From: Chitinophaga pinensis
GTDB lineage: Bacteria; Bacteroidota; Bacteroidia; Chitinophagales; Chitinophagaceae
DNA length: 64,000 bases
NCBI GenBank assembly: GCA_945878115.1
Contig: CAMDVD010000007.1
Location: 1-64,000, forward strand
Reading direction: 5' to 3'
Shown: one piece after another, positions 881-51,243 of the stretch
Layout of the letters: the number at the start of each line of letters is the position of its first letter
Position numbering within the stretch: position 1 is the first letter of the stretch
Notes under the pieces: generated by a model
Databases searched by the model: none
Told to the model about the DNA's origin: nothing
What the model saw: only the letters and a program-made list of their open reading frames with translations
Translations under genes and position numbers: made by a program

Positions 881-957
881 TGACTTTAAAACAGTTTTAT
901 AACCTTTGATTTCTTAAACGACTGACCCCAAAACACCATTACTTTTAGCCTATTTCT
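881..957 (-). pseudogene. decayed copy of the C-terminus of the 4268-4483 small membrane protein
   Basis: Minus strand reads NGVLGSVV*EIKGYKTVLKS versus NGVPGSVIYEIKGKTVLKS in the intact gene, with an internal stop and a 1-nt indel further upstream. Confidence 0.6.
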
Positions 958-984
958 TGTATTTGCTGCTATAGGAAGTTATTC

Positions 985-2379
985 TTACTTTACATAAACT
1001 CCATCTTTCCATTCTCCAACATATTTATCTCCGCTTACAGTTGTAAAAGTTCCTTGACCACTTTTTATGCCATCTTTCCATTCTCCAACATATTTAGCTC
1101 CGTTTGAATATGTAGTAGTTCCTTGACCATTCATATTGTCATCTTTAAATTCTCCTACATATTTATTTCCATTTGAAAATGTAACAGTTCCAAGACCATT
1201 TTTTTTGCCATCTTTATATTCTCCGACATATTTATCTCCGTTTGAATATGTGTAAGTTCCAAGACCATTTTTTTTGCCATCTTTATATTCTCCGACATAT
1301 TTATCTCCATTTGCAGATGTCATAGTTCCTTGACCGTTTTGTTTGCCATCTTTCCATTCTCCTACATATTTATCTCCGTTCGCAGATGTATAAGTTCCTT
1401 GACCATTCATATTGCCATCTTTAAATTCTCCTACATATTTCTCCCCATTTATAATTGTAAAAGTCCCTAAACCATTGAATCTGTTATCTTTAAATTCTCC
1501 TACATATTTATTTCCATTTGAAAATGTCAAAGTTCCTTGACCATTTGATTTGCCATCTTTCACTTCTCCAACATATTTATCTCCGTTTGCAGTTGTCAAA
1601 GTTCCTTGACCATTCATATTGTGATCTTTAAATTCTCCTACATATTTATCTCCATTTGAAGATGTCAAAGTTCCATGACCATTTGATTTGCCATCTTTCC
1701 ATTCTCCAACATATTTAGCTCCGATTACAGTTGTGGTAGTTCCTTGACCATTCATAATTCCATCTTTCCATTCTCCTACATATTTATCTCCATTTGAATA
1801 TGTCATAGTTCCTTGACCATTCATATCGCCATCTTTAAATTCTCCTACATATCTATCTCCGTTTGAAAATGTAAAAGTTCCATATCCTTGAATACAGTTA
1901 CCAATAACACAACCGAAAGAATTTATGTAAGTACTGCCATTACCAATAATTAATGAATTGGTTGAATAATCAAACGAAAATTTACCAAGTTTACTTAGTG
2001 CTGATTGCCCTAATAATATTGGGGCATCATTGTTATGAATTATAGTCGCTTCTACATTCTTTATTACATACCCACCTATGTTTATTGAATCAAGAATAAT
2101 CTTTGTACCTTCTTGGATTTCTCCATTTGCTATTTGATAGTATTCTGTGCCTAAAATATTATCCTTTGATAAATAGTTGTTTTTTAGCATAAATATTGCT
2201 TCAGCTAGAGAAATTGTAACATCACTTGCTCCACTATCAAAGACAAATTTCATATTCAAGCCGTTTACCTGACAAGGAATATAATAAACGCCATTTCTTT
2301 TTTCTAAAATAACTCTGGATTGAGCACTTGCATTTGTAATGAGAATTATTAGAAGAAGAAAAGTGATGATATTTTTCAT
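985..2379 (-). CDS. secreted retropepsin-like aspartic protease fused to about 13 MORN repeats
   Basis: Signal peptide MKNIITFLLLIILITNASAQ; FDSGASDVTIS active-site-like motif (clan AA aspartic protease); 23-aa GQGTxTxxNGDKYVGEFKDGxxN repeats. Confidence 0.8.
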   Translation of the reverse strand: MKNIITFLLLIILITNASAQSRVILEKRNGVYYIPCQVNGLNMKFVFDSGASDVTISLAEAIFMLKNNYLSKDNILGTEYYQIANGEIQEGTKIILDSINIGGYVIKNVEATIIHNNDAPILLGQSALSKLGKFSFDYSTNSLIIGNGSTYINSFGCVIGNCIQGYGTFTFSNGDRYVGEFKDGDMNGQGTMTYSNGDKYVGEWKDGIMNGQGTTTTVIGAKYVGEWKDGKSNGHGTLTSSNGDKYVGEFKDHNMNGQGTLTTANGDKYVGEVKDGKSNGQGTLTFSNGNKYVGEFKDNRFNGLGTFTIINGEKYVGEFKDGNMNGQGTYTSANGDKYVGEWKDGKQNGQGTMTSANGDKYVGEYKDGKKNGLGTYTYSNGDKYVGEYKDGKKNGLGTVTFSNGNKYVGEFKDDNMNGQGTTTYSNGAKYVGEWKDGIKSGQGTFTTVSGDKYVGEWKDGVYVK

Positions 2380-2511
2380 GGTATTTTTTTAATGCTCTAA
2401 AAGGTCGTTCTAAGAAAAAACCACCGTTTGCATCACACAAATCTAAGAAAAACTATCATTCGAATCACTGAACCGCCAATTTCTTGTAGGTGCTGTTATT
2501 GCGCGTTATTC

Positions 2512-3846
2512 TTACTTTACATAAACTCCATCTTTCCATTCTCCAACAAATTTATTTCCATTTAGAGATGTCATAGTTCCTTGACCATTTTGTATGTTAT
2601 CTTTAAATTCTCCAACATATTTATCTCCATTTGAAAATGTATAAGTTCCTTGACCATTTTTTTTGTTATCTTTATATTCTCCGACATATTTAGCTCCGCT
2701 TGAATATGTCAAAGTTCCTTGACCATTCATATTGCCATCTTTAAATTCTCCAACCAACTTATCTCCGTTTGAAAATGTAAAAGTTCCTAGACCATTCATT
2801 TTGTCATCTTTAAATTCTCCAACATATTTATCTCCATTTGAAAATGTATAAGTTCCTTGACCATTTTTTTTGTTATCTTTATATTCTCCGACATATTTAG
2901 CTCCGCTTGAATATGTCAAAGTTGCTTGACCATTCATATTGCCATCTTTAAATTCTCCTACATATTTATCTCCATTTGAAGATGTAAAAGTTCCTTGACC
3001 ATTTTGTTTGTCATCTTTCCATACTCCAACATATTTATTTCCATTTGCAGTTGTCAAAGTTCCTAGACCATTCATTTTGTCATCTTTAAATTCTCCAACC
3101 AACTTATCTCCGTTTGAAAATGTAAAAGTTCCTAGACCATTTTGTTTGCCATCTTTCATTTCTCCAACATATTTATCTCCATTTGAAAATGTAACAGTTC
3201 CTTGACCATTTTGTTCGCCATATTTATATTCTCCTACATATTTATCTCCGTTTGCAATTGTCAAAGTTCCTTGACCATCTGGTTTGCCATCTTTAAATTC
3301 TCCAACATATTTATCTCCGTTTGCTTTTGTCAAAGTTCCTTGACCATTCATATTGCCATCTTTAAATTCTCCTACATATTTCTCTCCATTTATAATTGTA
3401 AAAGTCCCTAAACCATTGAATTTGTTATCTTTAAATTCTCCTACATATTTATCTCCGCTGACAGTTGTCAAAGTTCCTTGACCATTCATATTGTCATCTT
3501 TAAATTCTCCTACATATTTATTTCCATTTATAATTGTAAAAGTCCCTAAACCATTGAATTTGTTATCTATAAATTCTCCTACATAATTATCTCCGTTTGC
3601 AGTTGTAAAAGTTCCTTGACCATTTTGTTTGTCATCTTTCCATACTCCAACATATTTATTTCCATTTGCAGTTGTCAAAGTTCCTTGACCATTTGATTTG
3701 CCATCTTTCATTTCTCCAACATATTTATCTCCGCTTACAGTTGTAAAAGTTCCTTGACCATTTCTTTTTTCTGAAATAACCTTAGTTTGAGCGTTTGCAT
3801 TTATAATTAGAATTATAAGAAGTAGAAAAGTGATTAAATTTTTCAT
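2512..3846 (-). CDS. secreted MORN-repeat protein (about 18 repeats), protease-less paralog
   Basis: Near-identical signal peptide followed directly by 23-aa MORN repeats; C-terminus EWKDGVYVK identical to the neighbour. Confidence 0.8.
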   Translation of the reverse strand: MKNLITFLLLIILIINANAQTKVISEKRNGQGTFTTVSGDKYVGEMKDGKSNGQGTLTTANGNKYVGVWKDDKQNGQGTFTTANGDNYVGEFIDNKFNGLGTFTIINGNKYVGEFKDDNMNGQGTLTTVSGDKYVGEFKDNKFNGLGTFTIINGEKYVGEFKDGNMNGQGTLTKANGDKYVGEFKDGKPDGQGTLTIANGDKYVGEYKYGEQNGQGTVTFSNGDKYVGEMKDGKQNGLGTFTFSNGDKLVGEFKDDKMNGLGTLTTANGNKYVGVWKDDKQNGQGTFTSSNGDKYVGEFKDGNMNGQATLTYSSGAKYVGEYKDNKKNGQGTYTFSNGDKYVGEFKDDKMNGLGTFTFSNGDKLVGEFKDGNMNGQGTLTYSSGAKYVGEYKDNKKNGQGTYTFSNGDKYVGEFKDNIQNGQGTMTSLNGNKFVGEWKDGVYVK

Positions 3847-15500: not shown

Positions 15501-15540
15501 AGGCCGAATTCTAATGATGGCAGAGACAATTACTGGCGCT

Positions 15541-15950
15541 GGAATGAGGCGTTGCTTTTGTGCGAAGGCTTCCTATGCCTTGTCTATTTTAGGAAACATA
15601 AACAATTAATCTACACATACTGTCGCAGGAATGAGGCGTTGCTGTTGTGCGATGGCTTCCTGTGCCTTGTCCATTTTAAGAAACATAAACAATTAATCTA
15701 CACATACTGGCGCAGGAATGAGGCGTTGCTTTTGTGCGAAGGCTTCCTGTGCCTTGTCTATTTTAGGAAACATAAACGATTAATCTACACATACTGGCGC
15801 AGGAATGAGGCGTTGCCTTTGTGCGATGGCTTCTTGTGTCTTGTCTATTTAAGAAACATAAACAATTAATCTACACATACTGGCGCAGGAATGAGGCGTT
15901 GCCTTTGTGCGATGGCTTCCTGTGCCTTGTCTATTTTAGGAAACATAAAC
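15541..15950 (+). repeat. direct tandem array of 87-bp REP units (family 1), about 4.7 copies
   Basis: GGAATGAGGCGTTGC...GGCTTCCTGTGCCTTGTC... begins at 15541, 15628, 15715, 15802 and 15888 (periods 87, 87, 87, 86). Confidence 0.95.
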
Positions 15951-16499
15951 ATTCAATCTTTTAATCGGCACTTTACCTTCCGTGTCAAAATAATAATCTC
16001 TAGCACTTGAATAAATATATTCTTCAGACTTATCTACAAAACCTGATACCACTGGATTATTGTGAATATAATCTAAACGCTGCCAAGCAATTTCTATTTT
16101 ATCTAAAACAATTGGATGACTATCCTGAATCCAAAATTGAAAATTAGCATTGTCATTATTTGTTTTTCCAGCTTGTTCCATCATAGCTAACATCCATTCC
16201 CTTCTGCTTTCTTGTTTATTATTTCGTATAGCATACTTCAATTTCTCTGATGTATGTTTCTTCATATCTCTAACTATATCTTCTAATTTATTTTTATTGC
16301 TTCCAATTATCATATGCACATGGCTAGTCATGATACACCAACCATAAATTTCCAACCCTTTATTTTTAATACAATATTTCCAACTGTCGATTAATATTTC
16401 TTTATATTCATTTCTAATAAAAACATCTATCCAGTTTATCACTGTAAATGTTACAAAGTAGATTTCATTTTGATCTCTGAATTTATATTTTGTGCTCAT
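15936..16499 (-). mobile_element. REP-associated tyrosine transposase (RAYT, Y1_Tnp/TnpA-REP-like), family 1
   Basis: IYFVTFTVINWIDVF...KGLEIYGWCIMTSHVHMIIGS (HxH motif)...RLDYIHNNPVVSGFV...YSSARDYY; flanked on both sides by REP hairpins. Confidence 0.92.
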
Positions 16500-16534
16500 G
16501 CAATTGCAAGTTAATTGTTTTTCATAATGGGCAG

Positions 16535-16576
16535 GCACAGGAAGCCAACGCTCTTAGCAACGCCTCATTCCTGCGC
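16535..16576 (-). repeat. family-1 REP hairpin upstream of RAYT, inverted relative to the 15541 array
   Basis: GCACAGGAA ... TTCCTGCGC stem. Confidence 0.85.
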
Positions 16577-16593
16577 CAGAATAAGATTTTATT

Positions 16594-16702
16594 TTGATCT
16601 CTGAATTTTGTTTTTGTGTTCATGCACTAGCAAGTTAATTGTTTTTCATAATGGGCAGGCACAGGAAGCCAGCGCTCTTGGCAACACCTCATTCCTGCGC
16701 CA
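16594..16702 (-). repeat. second copy of RAYT 5' end plus REP hairpin
   Basis: TTTTGATCTCTGAATTTT...CATGCACTAGCAAGTTAATTGTTTTTCATAATGGGCAGGCACAGGAAGCC parallels 16467-16576; hairpin at 16659-16700. Confidence 0.85.
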
Positions 16703-16768
16703 GTAAAGAAAGAGAAAGGGAAAGAGAATGAGAAAGAATTTTATAGATATCTAAACTTTCCCTCTTAC

Positions 16769-48782: not shown

Positions 48783-49556
48783 ATGAAGCAATATCTGATT
48801 TGTTTTTTATTCGCCTTTACTGCAACAAGCTTGTATGCCCAACCTCCTTTGGAAACTAAATTTCCAGACTATGCCTTTTTAAATTATCAAATGACTTTTG
48901 AAAAAGTAAAAACAGCGGCTGCAAAAAGTGATACCGTAGTCAAAAAATTATTTGCTGCTAAAGGAATTAAATATCCATGTAAAAATATTTTATGGCGTGC
49001 TTTTAAAGGTCCTAGTGAAATGGAATTGTGGGCACGTAATTCAATCAATGATACTTTTGTCCTCATTAAAAATTATCAAATTTGTGCCTTGTCTGGCATA
49101 CTCGGACCCAAGCGTTGGGAAGGCGACAAGCAAGTACCAGAAGGCTTTTATTTCCTATCTGATTTCAAACCCAATAGTGCGTATTATCTTTCTATGTTGG
49201 TTGGCTATCCGAATTATTCCGATTTAATACAAGGCAACAAAGAAAAACCTGGTGGGGATATTTATATTCATGGTGCTTGTATGACCATTGGTTGTATGCC
49301 CATGACAGATGAACTTATTGGCGAATTGTATATCATCAGTATGAATGCAAGAGCTTATGGACAATTGAATATTCCAGTGCAGATTTACCCAATTCGCTAT
49401 ACCCAAAAATCAATAGATTTTTTAGGTCGTGAATATAAAAATGAAGCTGAAAAACAAAAGTTTTGGGTCAATATCAAACGAGCTTATGATTACTTTGAAG
49501 CTACCCACAGAACCTTACCTGTGATGTATGATAGCAAGGGGAATTATGCGTTTTAG
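48783..49556 (+). CDS. L,D-transpeptidase (YkuD-type catalytic domain)
   Basis: Signal peptide; GGDIYIHGACMTIGCMPMTDELIGELY (HG...S/TxGC-type motif). Confidence 0.88.
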   Translation: MKQYLICFLFAFTATSLYAQPPLETKFPDYAFLNYQMTFEKVKTAAAKSDTVVKKLFAAKGIKYPCKNILWRAFKGPSEMELWARNSINDTFVLIKNYQICALSGILGPKRWEGDKQVPEGFYFLSDFKPNSAYYLSMLVGYPNYSDLIQGNKEKPGGDIYIHGACMTIGCMPMTDELIGELYIISMNARAYGQLNIPVQIYPIRYTQKSIDFLGREYKNEAEKQKFWVNIKRAYDYFEATHRTLPVMYDSKGNYAF

Positions 49557-49577
49557 GGAATCTTTTGGTGATATATA

Positions 49578-49599
49578 TTGTTGGTGATAACACCAACAA
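49578..49599 (+). repeat. family-2 REP palindrome TTGTTGGTGATAACACCAACAA
   Basis: Perfect 9-bp stem, followed by TGGCG. Confidence 0.9.
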
Positions 49600-49791
49600 T
49601 GGCGTGATGCGTTTTAAAAAGCCTTTTGGTGGAATGTATAAGTGAATAACAATGGATTAAATTATAAACTTATAATTGTAGTAAATAAAATACTGTAACC
49701 TTATTTTAGGACGATACATACTTTTGTAAACCAAGAATAGAACTAAAACTTATTTTAGGCTTAAATTAAAAACTGTAAACTTATTTTAGGA

Positions 49792-49830
49792 CGCTACCGG
49801 TAGCGCCATTGTTGGTGTTATCACCAACAA
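49792..49830 (-). repeat. family-2 REP in reverse orientation, abutting CGCTACCGGTAGCG
   Basis: TTGTTGGTGTTATCACCAACAA at 49809-49830, preceded by CGCCA (reverse of TGGCG) and a perfect 14-bp palindrome at 49792-49805. Confidence 0.85.
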
Positions 49831-49846
49831 TTTATATTTTTCACCA

Positions 49847-49902
49847 TTGATGTTATCACCAACAATTCTTTTATTTTTAAACTTTAGTGTTATCGTCAAC
49901 AA
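49847..49902 (-). repeat. two degenerate family-2 REP copies
   Basis: TTGATGTTATCACCAACAA (49847-49865) and TTTAGTGTTATCGTCAACAA (about 49884-49902). Confidence 0.6.
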
Positions 49903-49919
49903 TTTTAATATTTTTTCTA

Positions 49920-50429
49920 ATGAATTTCAGTACAACTTACGCCGAGTTTTTAACGATCACAATTTTGCAATGGAAAAATCTTTTGAAACCAGAAAAGTAT
50001 AAAGAGATATTGGTAAATTCATTGTCTTATTTTGTAAAAGAAGAAAGAGCAAAAATATTTTCTTTTTGTATTATGGATAATCATATTCACTTGATTTGGC
50101 AAGCTGAACAAGATTATACATCGCGCGACAATCAACATAGTTTTACAAAATTTACTGCTCAACAAATAAAATTCGATCTGCAAAAAAATCATCCTAAAGT
50201 TTTAGAAATATTCCGAGTAAATGCCGCAGACCGGCTCTATCAATTTTGGGAACGAAACCCATTGCCAATTATATTATATAACGAAAATGTTTTTTTACAA
50301 AAGCTTGAATACATACATAGCAATCCAGTGAAAGCAGGTTTATGTTTGTTACCAGAAGATTATTACTATTCATCCGCATCCTTTTATTTGAATGGCGATA
50401 ATAGGTTTGACTTCTTGACTCATTATTAA
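49920..50429 (+). mobile_element. REP-associated tyrosine transposase (RAYT, Y1_Tnp-like), family 2
   Basis: YAEFLTITILQWKNLL...AKIFSFCIMDNHIHLIWQ (HxH)...KLEYIHSNPVKAGLC...YYYSSASFY; start moved to the ATG at 49920; flanked by family-2 REPs. Confidence 0.9.
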
Positions 50430-50730
50430 TCTTTGGTGATATAAATTGTTGGTGATAACACCAACAATGGCGGAATACGCTATACCCAAAAAGCAATAGA
50501 TTTTTTAGGTCGTGAATATAAAAATGAAGCGGAAAAACAAAAGTTTTGGGTCAATATCAAACGAGCTTATGATTACTTTGAAGCTACACACAGGACCTTA
50601 CCTGTGATGTATGATAGCAAAGGGAATTATGCGTTTTAAGGAAATCTTTGGTGATATAAGTTTGACTTCTTGACTCATTATTAATCTTTGGTGATATATA
50701 TTGTTGGTGATAACACCAACAATGGCGGAA
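50405..50730 (+). repeat. 255-bp-period duplication: RAYT 3' tail plus REP plus L,D-transpeptidase 3' end copy
   Basis: GTTTGACTTCTTGACTCATTATTAATCTTTGGTGATATA...TTGTTGGTGATAACACCAACAATGGCGGAA at 50405 and 50660; REPs 50446-50467 and 50701-50722. Confidence 0.9.
50473..50653 (+). pseudogene. duplicated 3' end of the L,D-transpeptidase gene
   Basis: CGCTATACCCAAAAAGCAATAGATTTTTTAGG...GGGAATTATGCGTTTTAAGGAAATCTTTGGTGATATA nearly identical to 49392-49573. Confidence 0.92.
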
Positions 50731-51243
50731 AAGAATAACGTAAAGGAAAGAATATTATTTGATTTTGACAAATTTTAATCCATATTCAGGCTGTTCGATA
50801 TGTTAGGCTCTGCGCATGTCGAACGGATGATAATGAAGGTTCTGTGAACCTTATCCTAAATCTTTCATAGTGTCTTATTCTAAAATCGGGTTACGTGATT
50901 TGCTATTTTTACCAACATTTTTTATTTCTTTCTGTTGGTTCGGAGAACCAAATTTATTTGTCGTTCGACATGCCGCTAAGTGAATGTGGCGAACAGCGTG
51001 GAGATGGTTTATATTACAGGCAAAGCCTGCGAAGAACATAGCGCTTGCGAAGGCAAAGCCTTCGAAGAGTGAAGTTAAGAAAGTCTTGTAAATCACCGAC
51101 ACTATCCGGCATTCGGCATAACAGTTTGTGTCGAATGCCGCATTATGTCGCACATTGTGAAGAGTTTCTTGATTTGAGAAGTATTTTGTGTGATGAGGTT
51201 GGTTAAACTGTTTGTTTAGTATAATCAAGAAAATATATAACTT

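What the first reader, a model, noticed from the sequence alone, without database searches (positions are those of the whole stretch)
49392..50653. RAYT2 is embedded in a duplication of the host gene 3' end
The last ~165 bp of the L,D-transpeptidase gene plus its downstream TCTTTGGTGATATA (49392-49573) recurs nearly verbatim at 50473-50653, on the far side of the REP-RAYT-REP block. This is far longer than a target-site duplication. It suggests a copying mechanism that mobilised adjacent host DNA, or a tandem duplication later split by the RAYT.
Basis: partly seen in the sequence, partly recalled or inferred. Interest (0 to 1): 0.7.

Follow-up and report, generated by a model that had tools for sequence, protein, structure and literature searches.

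The report
REP-anchored duplication of host gene end
A piece of a cell-wall enzyme gene has been copied to the far side of a small transposase gene, with the copy starting exactly at the edge of a short hairpin repeat (REP); the same REP-edge duplications recur around this genome and its sister species, which suggests that these supposedly quiet transposases and their REPs insert or rearrange while duplicating tens to hundreds of bases of neighbouring host DNA.

Summary
The repeat is real: 49391-49575 and 50474-50658 are 95% identical. Copy 2 therefore looks like a 1083-bp unit (LDT end, REPs, whole RAYT) duplicated in tandem, minus 829 bp. A sister species (G013) has the RAYT at the same junction but no gene-end copy. 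So the RAYT did not split a pre-existing duplication, and this is probably not its original target duplication.

The pattern is general. In G000 and G013, 10 of 59 REP clusters lie between direct duplications of their flanks, versus 8 of 738 gene-end controls (p=6e-8). At nine loci, LDT included, the second copy starts 0-3 bp outside the REP's GGCG tag. REPs are mostly followed by GGCG-N-A-A. Clean empty sites in the other species exist for a single REP (~100-bp duplication), an in-frame REP doublet (~30 bp) and another whole REP-RAYT-REP unit (228 bp).

I infer one-ended, RAYT-dependent joining at the REP tag, with the other end closed imprecisely. Plain template switching at REP hairpins, documented in E. 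coli, is the main rival. New variant of a known kind.

The parts
48783..49556 (+). host gene: L,D-transpeptidase (YkuD-type), 257 aa, intact
   Evidence: ORF; Pfam YkuD E=4.9e-4, just below the cut-off; matches in 32 of 41 genomes searched
49389..49575 (+). copy 1 of the duplicated gene end: last ~55 codons + TCTTTTGGTGATATA
   Evidence: direct repeat D2, 95%
49577..49604 (+). REP1: palindrome GTTGGTGATAACACCAAC + GGCG tag
49607..49639 (+). older, diverged partial copy of the LDT end (76% to 49546-49578), starting 2 bp outside the REP1 tag; also in the sister species
   Evidence: (D5)
49804..49831 (-). inverted REP 5' of the RAYT (34-nt perfect inverted repeat with REP2 over 49804-49837); two decayed REPs follow at 49846-49867 and 49884-49905
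   Evidence: (I2)
49920..50429 (+). RAYT (REP-associated Y1 transposase), 169 aa, H-I-H motif (MDNHIHLIW) and YIHSNPV motif
   Evidence: Pfam Y1_Tnp E=1.1e-4; matches in 11 of 14 genus genomes
50393..50475 (+). RAYT 3' end + TCTTTGGTGATATA + REP2, copy 1 of the second duplicated tract
   Evidence: 95% to 50649-50730; 97% over 50401-50475
50445..50472 (+). REP2; GGCG tag ends at 50472, copy 2 of the LDT end starts 1 bp further on, at AA
   Evidence: single-strand fold -12.9 kcal/mol, z -6.6
50474..50658 (+). copy 2 of the LDT gene end (extra copy without the rest of the gene)
   Evidence: 95% to 49391-49575; no equivalent found in sister G013
50649..50730 (+). copy 2 of the RAYT 3' end + REP3 (tag ends at 50727)
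50731..51200 (.). cluster of other palindromic repeats between REP3 and the lectin-like gene, absent from the sister species at this place
   Evidence: sister REP joins directly to the equivalent of 51202

Best explanation
The locus shows a REP-anchored local duplication that arose after the RAYT was already resident. The REP2 end of the REP-RAYT-REP unit was joined, at the outer edge of its GGCG tag, to an AA site in the L,D-transpeptidase gene 1083 bp upstream on another copy of the chromosome. This duplicated the stretch from the LDT end through the RAYT to REP2. About 829 bp of the second copy (nearly all of the RAYT block) is missing, joined at the 3-base match ATA, either in the same event or later. 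Shown: the two duplicated tracts, the tag-flush junction, the sister with RAYT but no gene-end copy, and recurrence of the tag-flush junction at eight further loci. Inferred: that the RAYT (an HUH single-strand nuclease) makes the joint at the tag, as in one-ended single-strand transposition, and that the other end is closed imprecisely by replication or repair, which gives the variable 20-230-bp duplications. The same scheme covers true insertions of REPs, REP doublets and a whole REP-RAYT-REP unit with long target duplications.
For: Two linked duplicated tracts that fit one 1083-bp unit with one internal deletion: 243 of 255 bases match. Sister G013 has LDT-REP1-RAYT-REP2 in the same arrangement, but only one LDT end and one RAYT end. 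Flanking direct duplication at 10 of 59 REP clusters vs 8 of 738 gene-end controls, Fisher p=6e-8. Nine loci have copy 2 starting 0-3 bp outside GGCG; shifted anchors give 2 of 315. GGCG is mostly followed by N-A-A: +3 is A in 50 of 52, +2 in 42 of 52, and sequences diverge beyond. Where copy 1 shows the target, the AA is its own at 6 of 9 loci. Clean empty sites: aspartokinase/polA, 731-bp insert + 228-bp duplication around a RAYT; single REP + ~100 bp; in-frame REP doublet + ~30 bp. TnpA-REP enzymes cut next to REPs at the 5' or 3' side in vitro (PMC8266576).
Against: No biochemical evidence for this RAYT, and its Y1_Tnp score is just under Pfam's cut-off. Insertions without REPs also carry long direct duplications here (a toxin-antitoxin-like pair, 65 bp; two other cargoes, 93 and 153 bp), so long duplications are not exclusive to REPs. 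Template switching at REP hairpins is documented in E. coli without appeal to a RAYT (PMC3161906). Only one close sister species was available, and its assembly breaks inside the RAYT.
Confidence: 0.5

Rival explanations
1. Microhomology-mediated template switching (or fork collapse and repair) at REP hairpins, with no part for the RAYT protein: the polymerase jumps back from REP2 to the LDT end, copies ~182 bp up to the REP1 hairpin, jumps to the RAYT 3' end and goes on. The result is a direct duplication with an embedded deletion.
For: Junction matches of 2-3 bases (AA; ATA); both switch points abut REP hairpins. In E. coli 22 of 90 sequenced novel junctions lie at REPs, and a direct duplication with an embedded deletion from two direct switches is described (PMC3161906). 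Ku was not found in any of the 14 genomes, so end joining is unlikely.
Against: Does not by itself explain why the junction is at one side of the REP (0-3 bp outside GGCG at nine loci), the N-A-A motif, or the arrival of new REPs and a new RAYT at empty sites.
Confidence: 0.33
2. The LDT-end repeat is the long target-site duplication made when this RAYT unit first inserted; the sister species later lost the second copy, for example by recombination between REP2 and REP3 or by the deletion that removed the right flank of its REP.
For: Another RAYT (C28) sits in exactly such a duplication, with an empty site in the sister. The sister's right flank looks deleted right up to the REP tag and lacks the usual N-A-A, so a loss is possible.
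Against: The second RAYT end + REP3 to the right of copy 2 needs the RAYT to be present already. Copy 1 and copy 2 differ at 7 of about 165 coding sites, fewer than copy 1 and the sister (12), and copy 2 has the shortest branch, whereas an older duplication should give copy 2 the longest. A different, ~33-bp tag-flush duplication around REP1 is the better candidate for the original insertion.
Confidence: 0.1
3. Imported duplication: a DNA fragment from a related strain, carrying a diverged LDT end, was joined in by homology at one side and illegitimately at the other.
For: Copy divergence (5%) is close to the between-species divergence (5-7%), and copy 2 shares five alleles with the sister that copy 1 lacks.
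Against: With three sequences these counts are only branch lengths; distant relatives do not polarise the sites. It does not predict a junction at the REP tag.
Confidence: 0.05
4. Assembly artefact of a draft genome.
For: G000 is a 101-contig draft, and only the assembly could be examined, not reads.
Against: The copies differ at several sites, and many loci in two independent assemblies show the same architecture.
Confidence: 0.02

Closest known systems
REPtrons: RAYT / TnpA-REP with flanking inverted REPs (Nunvar 2010 PMC2817692; Corneloup 2021 PMC8266576)
   Same: Y1/HUH transposase gene between inverted REPs that are scattered through the genome; palindrome with a fixed 4-base tag at one foot; a single representative of each RAYT subfamily per genome
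   Different: Tag is CGCC (GGCG on the other strand) rather than GTAG; REPs and even a whole REP-RAYT-REP unit show presence/absence between sister species with long direct duplications, whereas PMC8266576 states that there is no evidence of tnpA-REP mobility
Tandem REPIN clusters with flanks f1/f2 in Pseudomonas fluorescens SBW25 (Bertels & Rainey 2011 PMC3116915)
   Same: REP units duplicated together with flanking DNA; clusters beside RAYTs; the authors suggest a second mechanism for cluster formation
   Different: Here the duplicated flank is often a host gene end, the copy starts at the tag edge, and empty sites in a sister species separate insertion from tandem duplication
Template-switch duplications at REP sequences in starving E. 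coli (Lin 2011 PMC3161906)
   Same: Microhomology junctions at REPs; a direct duplication with an embedded deletion
   Different: Much larger amplicons; no tag-edge preference or target motif is described in the passages read
IS200/IS605 single-strand transposition
   Same: HUH Y1 enzyme, subterminal hairpins, insertion next to a short target motif
CGTC-tagged REPs (PMC3733652)
   Same: Four-base CG-rich tag at the foot of the palindrome; occur in Bacteroidetes among other phyla; intragenic cases known
   Different: CGTC repeats lack a RAYT flanked by them; here the CGCC-tagged REPs do flank a RAYT

Membership tests
RAYT / REPtron | Y1 (IS200-like) transposase domain with HUH motif | tested here: inconclusive
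   Pfam Y1_Tnp E=1.1e-4, 22.7 bits against a cut-off of 23.0; H-I-H and YIHSNPV motifs read in the sequence; relatives at 50% in the genus
[quoted passage not shown]
   49804-49837 and 50439-50472 are a perfect 34-nt inverted pair
RAYT / REPtron | the same REPs scattered through the host genome | tested here: met
   about 30 places in G000, a similar number in G013
RAYT / REPtron | single copy of this RAYT per genome | tested here: met
   next best protein match in G000 is 38% identical
RAYT / REPtron | cleavage of single-stranded REP next to the tag | not testable with these tools
   needs purified protein
Target-site duplication of the RAYT insertion at LDT | both copies directly flank the element and the site is single without the element | tested here: not met
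   sister has the element and a single LDT end, and a RAYT end lies outside copy 2
Target-site duplication, C28 RAYT (comparison locus) | empty site with a single copy in a relative | tested here: met
   228 bp single in G013:C32, double around the RAYT in G000; loss in G013 by recombination not excluded
IS200/IS605 element | no larger target-site duplication on insertion | tested here: not met
   ~30, ~100 and 228 bp at three empty-site comparisons
Microhomology-mediated template switching at REPs | junctions with a few matching bases at or beside REP hairpins | tested here: met
   AA and ATA at the two junctions; REP hairpins fold at -10 to -13 kcal/mol

The most novel reading that the evidence does not exclude
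In this Bacteroidota genus RAYTs act as working one-ended transposases. They join the tag end of a REP, a REP doublet or their own REP-RAYT-REP unit precisely to an NAA site, while the other end is closed imprecisely upstream. This leaves direct duplications of about 20-230 bp of host DNA and, when the target is the same locus on a sister chromosome, tandem copies of host gene ends. It would be evidence for RAYT mobility and a route by which REPs spread.
Probability: 0.45. Interest if true: 0.78.

Novelty: new variant of a known kind. Interest (0 to 1): 0.6.

Why it matters
How REPs spread, and whether RAYTs ever move, is described in the literature as unresolved (PMC8266576). A genome pair with REP, REP-doublet and RAYT insertions beside matching empty sites, with a fixed junction at the tag and a fixed target motif, makes the question testable: it fixes which REP end is joined, names the target motif, and predicts the product structure. 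It also explains duplicated 3' and 5' gene ends near REPs, which can mislead annotation, and one case of new in-frame protein sequence (L201).

Tried and rejected
Polarising the LDT-end differences with 69-77% relatives failed because third codon positions are too variable. Unequal crossing-over between two REPs was rejected for the tag-flush cases: no REP precedes copy 1 except at one of the L195 anchors. End joining by Ku: no Ku in 14 genomes. The C19 RAYT of the sister was examined as a further empty-site case, but the orthologous region in G000 is replaced rather than empty. The 303-bp repeat on G000:C4 lies between variable cassettes, not around a RAYT. A search for more copies of a related REP type in G004 gave only four sites; one of them shows a ~17-bp tag-side repeat with a low score, too little to count. 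Two polymorphic REP sites (L155; L166 vs L199) are not clean presence/absence. A first version of the indel scan failed on gap parameters and was rerun.

Full report
OBSERVATION. The window holds a direct repeat of 185 bp at 95% (49391-49575 and 50474-50658, spacing 1083 bp). Between the copies lie REP1, an inverted REP (49804-49837) with two decayed ones, a 169-aa Y1 transposase (RAYT, 49920-50429) and REP2. Order: LDT end 1 - REP1 - inverted REPs - RAYT - REP2 - LDT end 2 - RAYT end 2 - REP3. A unit running from the LDT end to REP2, repeated once with 829 bp deleted inside copy 2, reproduces copy 2 at 243 of 255 bases. The joints share two bases (AA) and three bases (ATA).

SISTER SPECIES. 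G000 is a draft genome of 3.58 Mb. Its nearest held relative, G013 (titled as a Bacteroidetes MAG, RH-23may17-290), has an LDT protein 99% identical. In G013 the same LDT end, REP1, inverted REPs and RAYT start lie on one contig (C170) and the RAYT end with REP2 on another (C138); about 100 bp inside the RAYT is missing between them. There is one LDT end and one RAYT end; REP2 is followed at once by sequence equivalent to window 51202. So the RAYT was at this site before the two species split, and it can sit there without the gene-end copy. Seven differences separate the two copies over about 165 coding sites, against 12 and 8 to the sister. This favours a duplication after the split, but weakly: distant relatives do not polarise the sites, and the sister's right flank may itself have been deleted. 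None of the LDT loci of 11 other same-genus genomes shows a RAYT in the flanks fetched, some of them cut short by contig ends.

A SECOND, CLEANER CASE. A different RAYT in G000 (C28) lies between two copies of a 228-bp tract that is the 5' end and upstream region of an aspartokinase gene. G013 has the site empty, with a single copy: 731 bp of REP-RAYT-REP plus a 228-bp duplication. The C28-type RAYT has 76-77% relatives on contigs of two other species; in G007 that contig is not the one with the aspartokinase relative, so this lineage appears to change position. A third RAYT (C8) lies between 53-bp copies of a host gene 3' end in both species.

REP INSERTIONS. About 205 kb of orthologous G000-G013 DNA was compared for indels. 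In G013 a single ~29-bp REP lies between two ~100-bp copies of the 3' end of a gene; G000 has the gene with neither. In G013 a REP doublet lies in frame inside a methyltransferase-like gene with a ~30-bp duplication; G000 is empty. Insertions without REPs also had long duplications: a toxin-antitoxin-like pair (65 bp) and two other cargoes (93 and 153 bp). Long duplication is thus not by itself a mark of the RAYT.

STATISTICS. Ten of 59 REP clusters in G000+G013 lie between direct duplications of their flanks above the 99.5th percentile of mispaired flanks, against 8 of 738 gene 3' ends away from REPs (Fisher p=6e-8). Some loci are orthologous or counted twice; distinct loci are nine. Of 52 oriented REPs (palindrome + GGCG), 15 have a direct duplication with its right copy within 350 bp. 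At nine loci the right copy starts 0-3 bp outside GGCG; anchors shifted 600-2000 bp away gave 2 such starts in 315 trials. REPs at unrelated sites are followed by N-A-A (A at +3 in 50 of 52, at +2 in 42 of 52) and then diverge. At six of nine loci the AA belongs to the duplicated target. These tests were devised after the pattern was seen and should be repeated on fresh genomes; the regions were chosen around REPs.

MECHANISM. REP-type hairpins form at REP1-3. In vitro, TnpA-REP enzymes cut single-stranded REPs next to the hairpin (PMC8266576). A precise joint at the tag with an imprecise other end would give: at a new site, a REP, REP doublet or REP-RAYT-REP bounded by direct copies of the target; at its own locus on a sister chromosome, a tandem copy of [gene end - REP], as at L209 and, with an internal deletion, at LDT. 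The joint at LDT is REP2-GGCG-G|AATACGC, the AA being the LDT gene's own. The rival is template switching at hairpins, which in E. coli puts about a quarter of junctions at REPs and produces duplications with embedded deletions (PMC3161906). It explains the LDT structure almost as well, but not the one-sidedness, the target motif or the new arrivals. Ku was not found, so end joining of staggered breaks is unlikely.

NOVELTY. Tandem REPIN units with flanks were described in P. fluorescens (PMC3116915), and no evidence of RAYT mobility was known in 2021 (PMC8266576). In the open-access papers searched no report of tag-flush long duplications or of a RAYT with an empty orthologous site was found; subscription papers were not searchable. 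I therefore class this as a new variant of a known kind.

Noticed in passing
L201 7263-8612 (G013:C94): A REP doublet inserted in frame in a methyltransferase-like gene adds about 32 residues (FAVIGVITNNLVAVGDNTNNG plus a duplicated EDVLQKWHKP-type stretch); G000 has the gene without it.
   Followed up: yes
L170 3203-4078 (G000:C5): A toxin-antitoxin-like pair (XRE-type 100 aa and RelE-like 113 aa, named by eye) inserted between 65-bp direct copies; G013 has a single copy and no pair.
   Followed up: partly
L197 8778-10018 (G013:C13): A uvrC-like gene 3' end duplicated (153 bp) around about 935 bp of unidentified sequence; a REP lies just 3' of the second copy.
   Followed up: partly
L207 2844-3711 (G013:C152): 95-bp direct duplication around a 679-bp insert with unidentified short genes.
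   Followed up: no
L153 5196-5788 (G000:C20): RAYT pseudogene whose 3' end plus a different REP type (CCGCAGAGTC...CTCTGCGG) is duplicated, 235 bp at 94%, the second copy again starting beside a REP.
   Followed up: partly
L155 7363 / L156 8606-9083: Identity between the two species jumps from 94.5% to 98.5% beside a RAYT, at a 478-bp insertion in G013: possible recombination boundary.
   Followed up: no
window 15531-15959 and 16460-16703: Tandem arrays (87-bp and ~120-bp units) on both sides of the other RAYT of the window (15990-16460).
   Followed up: no
window 948-3771: Long arrays with a period of about 69 bp, 80-94% alike.
   Followed up: no
L254 (G004:C1:1706123-1706313): A solitary RAYT 3' end with its REP, about 44 kb from the intact RAYT of G004, like the RAYT ends left at LDT and C20.
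   Followed up: no
G000:C4 (L149 3962-4262 and 7210-7511): 303-bp promoter-region repeat between variable cassettes; the sister carries a RAYT at the same breakpoint.
   Followed up: partly
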